34,149 nt of DNA from a virus. Positions 7,840 to 34,149 of the stretch are shown here, piece by piece. The notes beneath the pieces are model-generated. The model was not told where the DNA came from and did not search any database. It worked only from the letters and a program-made list of their open reading frames with translations. Position 1 is the stretch's first letter, and each line of letters opens with the position of its first letter. A program made the position numbers and the translations under genes. Location of the stretch: positions 1-34,149 of the IMG/VR virus record IMGVR_UViG_3300046499_000490; one strand, written 5' to 3'.

Positions 7840-9105
7840 TCAGACCTTGGCGACCTTGAGGGCCGCCCACGTCTTCGGGCCGGGGTAGCCGTCGGCGTCG
7901 CCTCGGAGGTCGGCGCGCGACAGCTGGAAGTCGCGGACGTTCTCCCGGTCGGCGTTCGTCCAGTCCGGGCCCGGACCGTGCTGGTAGTGCTTGCCGAAGC
8001 CGAGCTGGACCAGGCGTCGGCCCATCGCGGTGATGATCGTGCTGTGGCGGCCGCCGTGGAAGAAGCCCTTGCCGGGGAACGGCTCGTAGACCGGCTGCGC
8101 GGGCTTCGGGGTGGGCTTCTCGGGCAGGGAGCCGAGGAGCTTGATCAGGCTGGTTGCCCCGGGAACGCCGTCGGCGTCCTGTCCGGCCGCGGTGCCCTTG
8201 TAGCCGAGGGACTTCTGGAAGTCGGAGAAGTTCCGGGTGTCGGCGTCCGCCCACGTCTCGTCCGTGCCGGTCGTGGTGTTCTTCCCGAACCCGTCCTTCG
8301 CCAGGGCCTTGCGGACGGCCGTGACGTGCGCGCCCTTGGCGCCGTATCCGTACTCCAGGCCGCCGATGGTGACCTTGTATCGGGCCGGGGTGGAGGCGGT
8401 GACGCCTCCGACTGCGGGGTACTTGGGGCGGCCGAATCCTGCGATGTCGTGGACGACGCGGACGCGGCGGGCGCACACGTTCCCGCTGTTGCCTTCGATC
8501 GTGTACACGTACTTGCCGTCGCTGGAGACGCTGGTGACGACGCCGACGTGGTCGATGGCGCCGATGTTGGAGGAGCCGTCCCAGTCGAAGAAGATGACGT
8601 CACCGCGGCGTATCCCCGACTTGAGGATCCCGGCGGTCATCGCGGTCCACTGGCCCGCGCCCTTGAAGGCGGAGGCATGGGCGACGGTGTAGGCCCAGTC
8701 CTTGCCGAAGCAGACGGCTTCGTAGTTGTCGGAGCCGTAGGCCGACAGCGTGACGGTGGCATCGCACCAGGCGAAGTTGCCGGAGTAGTCGGCGCCGTTG
8801 CGCCCCCGGTACCAGGCCTGGATGGCATTCGGCTCGCCGGTGCCGAGCCACGCCTCCATGGCCTGGATCATCTTCTCGAGGCCGCCGGTGTTCCCGCCGA
8901 GCTTGCGTGGCTCGGCGCCGTCTTCCGGGGTGTCCTCGGAGTCGGTGTCTGGGGCGCCGTAGATTCCGTGGTCGTTGGCCGGACCGAACTCGGCAGCGAG
9001 GAGTTCTTCCTCGTTGTCGACGGTGGGGCCGTTGCCGGTGCTGGTGAGCAGGGCGGCTTGCCGCTGCTGCGTGATGTCGTCCTCGATGGGGCGGGGCTCG
9101 CCCAT
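7840..9105 (-). CDS. Endolysin: CHAP-type amidase/peptidase with two C-terminal binding repeats
   Basis: A 421-residue peptidoglycan hydrolase with no signal peptide, as expected for holin-dependent release. The N-terminal 70 residues are acidic and disordered. The catalytic region (about 75-230) has the CHAP triad Cys114 (NFAWCDATV), His186 (AIDHVGVV) and Glu204/Asn206 (YTIEGNSG), and the typical GDVIFFDW strand. Two related segments follow (about 245-312 and 350-421), each with Trp-Ala/Thr-x-Ala-Asp, DFQ and D-A-D-G-x-P-G elements, resembling actinophage peptidoglycan-binding repeats. GAAGGAGA precedes the ATG. It lies between the papain-like peptidase and the holin. Confidence 0.9.
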   Translation of the reverse strand: MGEPRPIEDDITQQRQAALLTSTGNGPTVDNEEELLAAEFGPANDHGIYGAPDTDSEDTPEDGAEPRKLGGNTGGLEKMIQAMEAWLGTGEPNAIQAWYRGRNGADYSGNFAWCDATVTLSAYGSDNYEAVCFGKDWAYTVAHASAFKGAGQWTAMTAGILKSGIRRGDVIFFDWDGSSNIGAIDHVGVVTSVSSDGKYVYTIEGNSGNVCARRVRVVHDIAGFGRPKYPAVGGVTASTPARYKVTIGGLEYGYGAKGAHVTAVRKALAKDGFGKNTTTGTDETWADADTRNFSDFQKSLGYKGTAAGQDADGVPGATSLIKLLGSLPEKPTPKPAQPVYEPFPGKGFFHGGRHSTIITAMGRRLVQLGFGKHYQHGPGPDWTNADRENVRDFQLSRADLRGDADGYPGPKTWAALKVAKV

Positions 9106-9141: not shown

Positions 9142-9969
9142 CTACTGGCGTGCTGCGTCCAGGCGCGGCTGCACAAGGTCGATCTCGGCACGGAGGGCCT
9201 CGTAGATGGCCAGGGACATGCGGAACCCGCCTGAGTCCCCCCAGGAGGAACTCCAGCTATTCCGGATGCGGAGGATCGTGCGCGCGGGGTCGAGGTGTCC
9301 GCTGGCGTCCAGGGCCACGTCCTCGAGGGCGGTGATGCAGACTTCGTGTCCGCCGGCGACTGGGGAGTCCTGCCAGCCGGGGATGTCGTCCAGGAGGGCG
9401 GAGGATCCGACCGGCTCGAACCACGCTTGATACCAGACGGTGCCCATGAGGACGGGGCCGTTCTGCAGGTCGCGGCACAGTTCGAGGGCGGTCGTGGCGT
9501 GCCCGTACTGGTCGATGAGACCGCGGGCGCGCAGGGCCTTGGCGACGCCGAGGCCGGAGGATCCGCAGTCGACGTTGGGCCATGTCTGGTCGTGCCACTG
9601 GTCGCGGTGGGTGGCGTCGGAGTACAGGCCGATCGCCCACCGCTCGGCTGCGATCGGGGCGGTGACGTCCAGGCCTGCCACGGAGAGGGTGTCGGCGTCT
9701 TGGAGGATGGATACGAGGGCTGTGGCCGCGTTGGCGGTGCAGGAGCCCAGGGCGTCCGCGTCGTCGACGCCGTCGACCAGCTGCGAGGTGTGGATGCCCT
9801 GGGCGAGGAGGTCCTGCTGGTCCAGGACGGGGACCTTGGGCGCCCACTCGGTGGGCTTCAGCGGTTCGCCGGTGTAGCGGCGCCGGTAGGCGAGGCTCCG
9901 CGGGTCACGAACGAGGTGCCTGCCGAGCTGTGGCGTGACGTCGTACTGCTTGATGTCGAGGTCGGGCAC
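9142..9969 (-). CDS. Papain-like (C1 family) cysteine peptidase
   Basis: About 275 residues from the GTG at 9969, which has CAGGAG nine bases upstream; a GTG at 9987 would add six residues but its G-rich motif is too close. The C1 signature is complete: DQQDL to LGSCTANA with nucleophile Cys77, GGHEVCITAL with His208, and IRNSWSSSWGDSGGF with Asn237 (numbering from 9969). Papain-fold enzymes cleave peptide bonds. No secretion signal or propeptide is evident. The gene sits 36 bases before the endolysin start and after the fibre module, so roles in virion maturation, tail-tip digestion of a host surface protein or lysis are all possible. It is not a standard part of siphovirus late operons as I know them. 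Confidence 0.85.
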   Translation of the reverse strand: MPDLDIKQYDVTPQLGRHLVRDPRSLAYRRRYTGEPLKPTEWAPKVPVLDQQDLLAQGIHTSQLVDGVDDADALGSCTANAATALVSILQDADTLSVAGLDVTAPIAAERWAIGLYSDATHRDQWHDQTWPNVDCGSSGLGVAKALRARGLIDQYGHATTALELCRDLQNGPVLMGTVWYQAWFEPVGSSALLDDIPGWQDSPVAGGHEVCITALEDVALDASGHLDPARTILRIRNSWSSSWGDSGGFRMSLAIYEALRAEIDLVQPRLDAARQ

Positions 9970-10016
9970 TCGCCCGTGCTCCTGCACTCCCCGCGCCCAG
10001 AGCTGACTTTGTGGCG

Positions 10017-10034
10017 GACCGCTGTGGTGCGGTC
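10017..10034 (-). terminator. Hairpin in the 157-base gap before the peptidase gene
   Basis: GACCGC, loop TGTGGT and GCGGTC form a perfect six-base-pair stem upstream of the papain-like gene. It may act with the hairpin at 10100-10118 as a partial terminator or as a processed mRNA end. Confidence 0.35.
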
Positions 10035-10099
10035 GTCCCTCGGGGGTGTGGAGCGGGTGCGGGCGGAGGGTCGCCCGGTGATCTCAGGCTACGTGCTGG

Positions 10100-10118
10100 C
10101 GGGGCTGGTGTTGCCCCG
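10100..10118 (-). terminator. Hairpin just after the 94-residue gene
   Basis: CGGGGC, loop TGGTGTT and GCCCCG form a perfect six-base-pair stem, beginning eight bases beyond the TGA at 10127. The position fits a terminator or attenuator between the fibre module and the peptidase and lysis genes. No T-run is present. Confidence 0.4.
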
Positions 10119-10126
10119 GCTCAATG

Positions 10127-10411
10127 TCAGGGCTGTGTGGGCTGCGGCGGAACGTACACGATGTCGCGCGCCTCGCCGCGGGTGCCGCTCCACGCTCGGT
10201 CCACGTACACGATGTAGTCGGGGTGGTCGGTGTTGATGCGGTTCACGATGATCCGGACGATGTCGTCGATGTCCTGGTCGGTGAGGTTGTCGATGGCGAA
10301 GCCGGCGAAAGTGAGCGGGACAGGGAACAAATCGTAGGTATCGTCGTTGGGGCCGCCGTTGATGCTGACGGTGAGCTTGTTGAACAGTGCATCGGCGGGT
10401 TTGGTCAGCAC
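10127..10411 (-). CDS. 94-residue unknown protein following the large fibre gene
   Basis: Starts at GTG 10411 with AAGGAGA six bases upstream, partly overlapping the TAA of the fibre gene. The frame extends far upstream but that region is the shadow of the fibre gene. The protein has an acidic helical stretch (NLTDQDIDDIVRIIVNRIN), a short aromatic segment (DHPDYIVYVDRAW) and a Pro-rich end. No membrane segment or known motif is visible. Its tight coupling to the fibre gene suggests a fibre assembly factor or a small tip protein, which is only an inference. Confidence 0.75.
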   Translation of the reverse strand: MLTKPADALFNKLTVSINGGPNDDTYDLFPVPLTFAGFAIDNLTDQDIDDIVRIIVNRINTDHPDYIVYVDRAWSGTRGEARDIVYVPPQPTQP

Positions 10412-33760: not shown

Positions 33761-34149
33761 TCACCAGGGGGCGTGTCCGCCGTTGGCCCAGGTGATGAGG
33801 CCGTGTCCGTCGATGAGGCGGATGGGCTGCGGAAGCATTGTGTTGGTTTCCACGGCGGCGCGGGTGAAGCCGGCGGTGGTGACGATGACGGCCTGGTGGC
33901 AGTGGTGGATGTCGCGGTAGACGCCGTTGATGGTCTGGATGGTCTCGGAGCCGACGTTGTTGCCGTCCCGGTACTTCTTGCACTGGATGAGGATGCGGCG
34001 TCCGTCGGTGAGGTGGACATGGACGTCCAGGCCGCGGTCGTTGGCTTGTCCGACGGCGATTGCCTGGAGGACGTCCGGGTCCTTCTGTGCGAGTTCGGCG
34101 ATGGCTTGTTCGAAGCGGGCCGGGGTCATGCGGTGGAAGGCGTTCAGGG
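33761..34149 (-). CDS. Mrr-like restriction endonuclease fold protein (5' end outside window)
   Basis: The open frame continues to the window edge; at least 122 residues from an ATG at 34129 are visible and a farther start is likely because the frame is open. The Mrr_cat pattern is present: RFEQAIAELAQ helix, GLDVHVHLTDGRR with the catalytic Asp, ILIQCKKY with Gln-x-Lys, then AVIVTTAGFTRAAVE and IRLIDGHGLITWA. This fold cuts DNA, often modified DNA. It is on the late strand ahead of the small terminase, where many actinophages carry an HNH nuclease. The strong hairpin and the antisense lipoprotein gene separate it from the terminase. Confidence 0.82.
   Translation of the reverse strand, partial: LNAFHRMTPARFEQAIAELAQKDPDVLQAIAVGQANDRGLDVHVHLTDGRRILIQCKKYRDGNNVGSETIQTINGVYRDIHHCHQAVIVTTAGFTRAAVETNTMLPQPIRLIDGHGLITWANGGHAPW

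What the first reader, a model, noticed from the sequence alone, without database searches (positions are those of the whole stretch)
9142..9969. Papain-like cysteine peptidase beside the endolysin
All C1 catalytic signatures (GSC, GGH, NSW...WGDSGG) are intact in a phage protein placed between the fibre module and the endolysin. Siphovirus late operons rarely carry a C1 peptidase. It could be a virion enzyme acting on host surface proteins during entry, a maturation protease for the fibre, or a third lysis enzyme.
Basis: partly seen in the sequence, partly recalled or inferred. Interest (0 to 1): 0.62.

Follow-up and report, generated by a model that had tools for sequence, protein, structure and literature searches.

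The report
Papain-like protease heading lysis operon
A Streptomyces phage carries a papain-like protease as the first gene of its cell-bursting operon, and that operon starts with a conserved promoter-like box and a folded RNA leader that related phages place directly in front of their wall-digesting enzyme.

Summary
An intact papain-fold peptidase is encoded at 9142-9969 on the minus strand (275 aa, GTG start), with Cys77, His208, Asn237 and Gln51. AlphaFold2 gives pLDDT 91; the best solved match is xylellain (Z 20.4). Phage C1A peptidases are already known (PHROG 16701), so the gene alone is a new member of a known kind. Its clade has a ~20-residue insert between the oxyanion Gln and the catalytic Cys (36 of 36 clade sequences, 0 of 42 others).

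The surroundings show where it belongs. Its stop codon overlaps the next gene's start by 4 nt in 28 of 38 related loci. A ~110-nt leader precedes it: a -10-like box, a 5' hairpin whose loop can form a pseudoknot, and a covarying second hairpin; no Rfam match. Of 76 assessable viral copies, 75 lie directly before a lysis gene: the peptidase (37), amidase-type endolysins (23, one label weak) or a wall-binding ORF (15). Prophages without the peptidase put the same leader before the endolysin. The gene is therefore an optional first gene of the lysis operon, most likely an accessory lysis protease. Its substrate and the leader's mechanism are inferred, not shown.

The parts
9142..9969 (-). papain-like peptidase gene, GTG start 9969, stop TAG 9142-9144, 275 aa
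9865..9969 (-). codons 1-35: conserved N-terminal segment (G16 R17 D22 R24 S25 invariant in 74), overlays pro-segments of solved pro-enzymes
9817..9819 (-). codon of Gln51, the presumed oxyanion-hole Gln
   Evidence: 74 of 74
9754..9813 (-). clade-specific insert (about residues 53-72) between Gln51 and Cys77
   Evidence: 36 of 36 clade sequences, 0 of 42 others; conserved residues
9739..9741 (-). codon of catalytic Cys77
   Evidence: 74 of 74
9346..9348 (-). codon of catalytic His208
   Evidence: 74 of 74
9259..9261 (-). codon of catalytic Asn237
   Evidence: Asn in 70 of 74, Gln in 4
9979..9983 (-). Shine-Dalgarno AGGAG, 9 nt before the start codon
9989..9996 (-). conserved GCGCGGGG before the ribosome site
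   Evidence: GCGCnGGGGA in 67 of 73 leaders
10017..10034 (-). leader hairpin P4, GACCGC/GCGGTC
   Evidence: covariation
10035..10041 (-). GAGGGAC; GAGGG can pair with the P1 loop (pseudoknot)
   Evidence: complementarity invariant in 33 of 33 leaders not chosen by motif; no covariation, so not proven
10061..10076 (-). leader hairpin P1, GGGCG-ACCCTC-CGCCC
   Evidence: CG/TA compensatory changes
10086..10091 (-). -10-like box TAGCCT (TANNNT), 9 nt before P1
   Evidence: TANNNT in 73 of 73 leaders 6-10 nt before P1, shuffled mean 1.9
10109..10117 (-). conserved GGGGCAACA upstream of the -10-like box in the peptidase clade
7840..9105 (-). endolysin: CHAP domain plus C-terminal wall-binding module; 36 nt after the peptidase stop

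Best explanation
The peptidase is the first, optional gene of the phage's lysis operon. Shown by sequence: a conserved -10-like box, a ~110-nt leader with covarying hairpins, then the peptidase gene, then the endolysin gene, often overlapping by 4 nt in relatives. Inferred: the operon is transcribed late, starting near hairpin P1; the leader sets the level or timing of lysis proteins; the peptidase, with no evident signal peptide (judged by eye from the sequence), stays in the cytoplasm, held latent by its N-terminal segment across the active-site cleft; when the holin opens the membrane it leaves with the endolysin and cleaves protein or peptide material of the envelope, helping the wall hydrolase. 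The insert beside the active site probably narrows substrate choice.
For: Shared leader: of 80 viral loci with the motif, the next gene is the peptidase in 37, an Amidase_2 endolysin in 21 (one, L262, a weak label), a wall-binding ORF in 15, an amidase-like endolysin in 2; 4 were too short to tell and 1 had none (82 stretches found, 80 held); the reversed control pattern gave 3 stretches. In 295 Streptomyces genomes 11 have the motif and the reversed control 0; next gene: peptidase 2, wall-binding ORF 3, amidase 5, broken amidase 1. Coupling: 4-nt overlap with the next ORF in 28 of 38 loci, 25 of 35 without duplicates. The endolysin's catalytic type swaps (sequence groups of 19, 6, 6, 1, 1 among 33) while the peptidase stays. 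Elsewhere: endolysin-type gene directly downstream in 27 of the 38 distant viral loci with an assessable ORF, of 44; lysin, peptidase, holin order in four Gordonia phages, and a lysin and membrane genes beside it in Mufasa8. Fold and catalytic residues intact. Latency: model residues 9-35 overlay pro-segments.
Against: No activity, expression, virion or phenotype data. Relatives also sit inside tRNA arrays (Shaeky, Sycamore, L111, L116, L120) and far from lysis genes in mycobacteriophages CRB2 and DrLupo, so the family is not tied to lysis everywhere. Many leader-bearing phages do without it (38 of the 75 lysis-linked viral loci). Adjacent genes may be co-expressed without acting together. Latency rests on overlay ranges of a predicted model. 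The loci are mostly related Streptomyces phages, so counts are not independent events; on the tree, lysis against other context changes only 3 times.
Confidence: 0.62

Rival explanations
1. It is itself a second endolysin: a peptidoglycan endopeptidase that cuts stem peptides or cross-bridges, complementing the amidase, CHAP or lysozyme encoded next to it.
For: Lysis-operon place; papain-like folds are common among wall hydrolases, and a papain-family N5 domain is predicted in mycobacteriophage LysA (PMC6116114, passages); viral structure matches carry labels such as 'Peptidoglycan binding-like' and 'N acetylmuramidase' (labels only).
Against: No wall-binding domain was found in it; nearest solved relatives are protein peptidases; it stays the same whichever wall bond the neighbouring endolysin cuts.
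Confidence: 0.25
2. It is a virion protease, acting on fibres during assembly or on host surface proteins during entry.
For: It follows the fibre gene in the window and its clade.
Against: Own promoter-like box and leader separate it from the tail genes; in four Gordonia phages it lies between lysin and holin genes; prophages with the same tail genes and leader lack it.
Confidence: 0.1
3. It is an intracellular protease against a host protein or defence system, carried wherever an extra gene fits.
For: Relatives in tRNA arrays and in non-lysis regions; no evident signal peptide.
Against: In the window clade its place and leader are those of lysis genes.
Confidence: 0.12
4. The leader is only a DNA-level control region (promoter plus protein-binding inverted repeats), not a working RNA.
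For: Strong -10-like box; inverted repeats could be operators; the proposed pseudoknot pairs never vary.
Against: P1 and P4 keep pairing while their sequence changes: 45 cells with changes on both sides against 13.6 in shuffles, 97.6% cells paired against 41-58% when slid (rows had been chosen for P4 pairing, which inflates the percentage paired).
Confidence: 0.2

Closest known systems
Xylellain-type C1A peptidases (xylellain, PDB 3ois)
   Same: Papain fold; best Z (20.4, rmsd 3.0, 216 residues) and best profile match (8.8e-14); the aligned range includes the N-terminal region.
   Different: About 20-residue insert between the oxyanion Gln and Cys; phage-encoded, in a lysis operon. That xylellain-type C1A genes were acquired by Siphoviridae and Myoviridae is in print (PMC10380794, passages seen).
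PHROG 16701 'peptidase' and actinophage proteins annotated 'cysteine protease'
   Same: 74 of 74 aligned relatives match; some lie in lysis cassettes.
   Different: The insert and the leader-headed operon.
Cathepsin X mini-loop
   Same: A loop beside the active site that sets specificity: a three-residue mini-loop gives carboxypeptidase action (PMC13257197, passages seen). That this loop lies between Gln and Cys is recalled.
   Different: Here about 20 residues, effect unknown.
Streptomyces phage ZL12 and ~85-94 kb Streptomyces phage-plasmids
   Same: Same gene order and leader; peptidase 56% identical in ZL12.
   Different: In ZL12 the wall-binding module is a separate ORF between peptidase and endolysin.
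Rfam RNA families (release 15)
   Same: None matched.
   Different: No match in the window at gathering score, none up to E 5 in its leader stretch, none in four other leader loci.

Membership tests
C1A papain family | papain fold | tested here: met
   pLDDT 91.4; xylellain Z 20.4, papain 2cio Z 15.4
C1A papain family | Cys, His, Asn in this order | tested here: met
   C77, H208, N237; 74/74, 74/74 and 70/74 (Gln in 4). Geometry was not measured: no coordinates were available
C1A papain family | oxyanion Gln six residues before Cys | tested here: not met
   Gln51 is conserved but 26 residues before Cys77; the insert is clade-wide. Hence described as a divergent papain-fold relative, not a standard member
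C1A papain family | Pfam PF00112 score above the curated cut-off | tested here: not met
   15.3 against 20.7; 38 of 74 relatives match at E <= 0.01, the window protein does not
C1A papain family | PROSITE PS00139, PS00639, PS00640 patterns (recalled) | tested here: not met
   window 0 of 3; the 83 sequences match 0, 6 and 0 times
C1A papain family | thiol peptidase activity | not testable with these tools
   needs purified protein
PHROG 16701 | profile match | tested here: met
   3.8e-23
Xylellain-type peptidases | N-terminal segment covering the active-site cleft (recalled feature) | tested here: inconclusive
   residues 9-35 align with pro-segments; coordinates not inspected
Phage endolysin | cleaves peptidoglycan | not testable with these tools
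   only the lysis-operon place is shown
Known Rfam leader or riboswitch family | covariance-model match | tested here: not met

The most novel reading that the evidence does not exclude
Streptomyces phages share an undescribed lysis-control RNA: a transcript that begins just after its -10 box with a pseudoknot (P1 loop CCCUC pairing GAGGG), followed by hairpin P4, and that switches expression of the lysis operon. In one large clade the first protein it controls is a latent papain-like protease with a gated active site that acts as a further lysis factor.
Probability: 0.3. Interest if true: 0.8.

Novelty: new variant of a known kind. Interest (0 to 1): 0.6.

Why it matters
Phage lysis is usually described as holin, endolysin and (in some) spanin or lipase. 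A protease that heads the lysis operon of a large Streptomyces phage-plasmid clade would be a further lysis factor. The leader is the more testable part: one short, conserved, folded element placed before lysis genes of different enzyme type would be a handle on how these phages time lysis, and a marker for finding lysis operons in Streptomyces prophages. The insert beside the active site makes a defined test case for how papain-fold peptidases change specificity.

Tried and rejected
A universal small partner gene: in four Gordonia phages a ~123-aa ORF overlaps the peptidase start, but in Mufasa8, L121 and L127 the overlapping ORF is a hydrophobic protein instead, so no common partner was found. 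A closing helix CCCC/GGGG in the leader (suggested) is not supported: several leaders break it without compensation. The minimum-energy fold of the window leader differs from the covarying one and was not used. N-terminal fusions suggested by long open frames upstream of some distant peptidases were not pursued: long chance frames are common at this G+C. C1 as strictly universal in the wider phage group: rejected, L283 has tail genes and leader without it. As a core test, 17 loci were fetched by the Dit protein: all 11 that reach past the fibre have the peptidase, five end too early and one distant relative (L156) lacks it; the 11 contigs are already in the peptidase-seeded list, so this is weak support. 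One covariance-model hit (G199, E 7.8e-4) has no lysis gene next to it and was taken as chance. The Gordonia terminase matches to the leader were taken as chance. L037 was dropped as truncated and L065-L068 and L131-L139 were not put in alignment A2. The regular expression for leaders missed L065 and L161; the model later found L065.

Full report
WHAT IS THERE. The frame is on the minus strand, 9142-9969, 275 aa from the GTG at 9969. PHROG 16701 'peptidase' matches at 3.8e-23; Pfam C1 only below its cut-off. With 74 relatives the profile reaches xylellain in the PDB at 8.8e-14. AlphaFold2 on that alignment gives mean pLDDT 91.4, pTM 0.91; the best solved match is xylellain (Z 20.4, 216 residues, rmsd 3.0), and mature papain 1-212 lies on residues 36-271. 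Q51, C77 and H208 are invariant in 74, N237 is Asn in 70 and Gln in 4; ZL12 itself has Gln there. Selection is purifying: dN/dS 0.225 to the closest relative.

TWO UNUSUAL FEATURES OF THE PROTEIN. First, between the oxyanion Gln and the catalytic Cys all 36 distinct sequences of the ZL12-like clade carry about 20 extra residues with their own conserved positions (L54, Q57, I59, D70, A73), while all 42 other sequences keep the usual DQGxLGSC spacing. The region is predicted with high confidence (block pLDDT 90-94). Cathepsin X is a known case of a loop beside the active site making a carboxypeptidase (PMC13257197, passages seen); whether this insert does anything alike is open. Second, the N-terminal segment is the most conserved non-catalytic part (G16, R17, D22, R24, S25 invariant), and residues 9-35 align with pro-segments of solved pro-enzymes while mature enzymes align only from about 36. 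I infer a latch; coordinates were not inspected.

DISTRIBUTION. The gene is not rare in actinophages: 28 phage records, 231 of 271 candidate IMG/VR stretches, of which the best 80 were kept, and 26 plasmid records, 25 Streptomyces and one Kitasatospora, nearly all 85-94 kb. At E 1e-15 it is in 4 of 199 Streptomyces genomes and 8 of 296 genomes drawn from the phylum. Phage acquisition of xylellain-type C1A genes is in print (PMC10380794, passages seen).

GENE ORDER. In 38 of 39 clade loci the Dit and next minor-tail homologues lie upstream; in the other (L014) the held stretch begins later. The peptidase stop overlaps the start of the next ORF by 4 nt (ATGA, GTGA or TTGA) in 28 of 38 loci, 25 of 35 without duplicates; in the window there is a 36-nt gap with an AAGGAG site. 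The next gene's catalytic part varies: among 33 endolysins there are sequence groups of 19, 6 (CHAP, with the window), 6, 1 and 1; Pfam finds CHAP in 6, Amidase_2 in 6 and lysozyme family 25 in 1. In distant loci an endolysin-type gene is directly downstream in 27 of 38 with an assessable ORF, of 44 (type assigned from one scanned member per similarity group). In Gordonia phages Mareelih, Morgana, GMA2 and Lilbeanie it lies between lysin and holin genes, and in Mufasa8 beside lysin A and membrane proteins. In distant genomes, L166 and L171 look to have amidases and L167 a chitinase-like gene as neighbours, judged by eye from sequence. Against this, Shaeky, Sycamore, L111, L116 and L120 have it inside tRNA arrays and CRB2 and DrLupo far from lysis genes. 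On the tree, lysis against other context needs 3 changes.

THE LEADER. The sequence before the gene is conserved across the clade (33 aligned). Reading down the minus strand of the window: GGGGCAACA, TAGCCT (10091-10086), hairpin P1 GGGCG-ACCCTC-CGCCC (10076-10061), GAGGGAC (10041-10035), hairpin P4 GACCGC-ACCACA-GCGGTC (10034-10017), GCGCGGGG (9996-9989), AGGAG, GTG. TANNNT stands 6-10 nt before P1 in 73 of 73 distinct viral leaders (shuffled mean 1.9, maximum 7; L196 and L206 had been left out as chance). P1 position 4 is C-G 54, T-A 15, T-G 4. On 45 leaders with P4 at its place, 97.6% of cells pair (41-58% when slid), 45 cells have changes on both sides against 13.6 in shuffles, and 5 of 6 P4 pairs have compensatory changes. 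Those 45 rows were chosen for P4 pairing and by a motif that fixes most of P1 and the pseudoknot arms, so the percentage paired is inflated and the pseudoknot pairs could not vary; in 33 leaders not chosen by motif the two arms are also invariant, which permits but does not prove the pseudoknot. P4 at its place occurs in 45 of 75 distinct elements (shuffles of all 80 gave a mean of 9.5, maximum 17); the remaining ones have other hairpins there or none at that offset. Rfam has no match.

WHERE ELSE THE LEADER IS. The motif GACCCTCCRCCC...GAGGGAC gave 82 viral stretches, 80 held; the reversed pattern gave 3. Next gene: peptidase 37, Amidase_2 endolysin 21 (L262 a weak label), wall-binding ORF 15, amidase-like endolysin 2, too short 4, none 1. 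So 75 of 76 assessable copies head a lysis gene. In 295 Streptomyces genomes 11 carry it, with no reversed match: next gene peptidase 2, wall-binding ORF 3, amidase 5, degenerate amidase 1. A covariance model finds 13 of 295, one of them (G199) with no lysis gene, and in 296 genomes of the phylum only the reference genome itself. Three amidase copies looked at in context lie in prophages with tape-measure, Dit and minor-tail homologues and no peptidase (L281, L282, L283). In the loci searched with the model, the distant peptidase loci gave nothing better than E 0.015, so the leader belongs to the window's clade and to other Streptomyces phages, not to the peptidase family as such.

READING. 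The leader precedes lysis genes whether or not the peptidase is present, and where present the peptidase is the first gene behind it and usually overlaps the next gene. That makes it an optional first gene of the lysis operon. The step from there to function (release with the endolysin, cleavage of envelope protein or peptide) is inference. A second-endolysin role is the main rival; papain-family domains are predicted in mycobacteriophage LysA (PMC6116114, passages seen), and a Gordonia phage announcement names a cysteine protease-like gene product as a predicted endolysin (PMC4982276, passage seen; its relation to this family was not tested).

LITERATURE. Ten paper searches were made; none found a study of a phage C1 peptidase's function in the listings seen. 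None concerned the leader.

Noticed in passing
window 9970-10117, minus strand: Conserved promoter-like box plus folded RNA leader before lysis genes of Streptomyces phages, not in Rfam; outside the finding's coordinates and more novel than the peptidase itself.
   Followed up: yes
L003, L009, L111, L116, L120: Relatives of the peptidase sit inside phage tRNA arrays in at least two unrelated phage groups; no explanation.
   Followed up: partly
window 7843-8101 (C-terminal part of the endolysin); L013, L019, L036, L001: The endolysin's C-terminal wall-binding module is a stand-alone ORF between peptidase and endolysin in ZL12 and some relatives, a split endolysin.
   Followed up: partly
window 10127-10411, minus strand: 94-aa ORF between fibre and leader, no PHROG match, homologues in L022 and L023 only among the clade loci.
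   Followed up: no
window 33761-34129, minus strand: 122-aa ORF that looks by eye like a Mrr-type restriction endonuclease domain beside the terminase genes; not scanned.
   Followed up: no
L004, L005, L006, L008: A conserved soluble ~123-aa family of unknown function overlaps the peptidase start by 4 nt in four Gordonia phages.
   Followed up: partly
L036, L038, L044, L049, L001, L010: Catalytic Asn replaced by Gln in some peptidases, including ZL12 and DrLupo; probably reduced but not lost activity (recalled from papain mutants).
   Followed up: no
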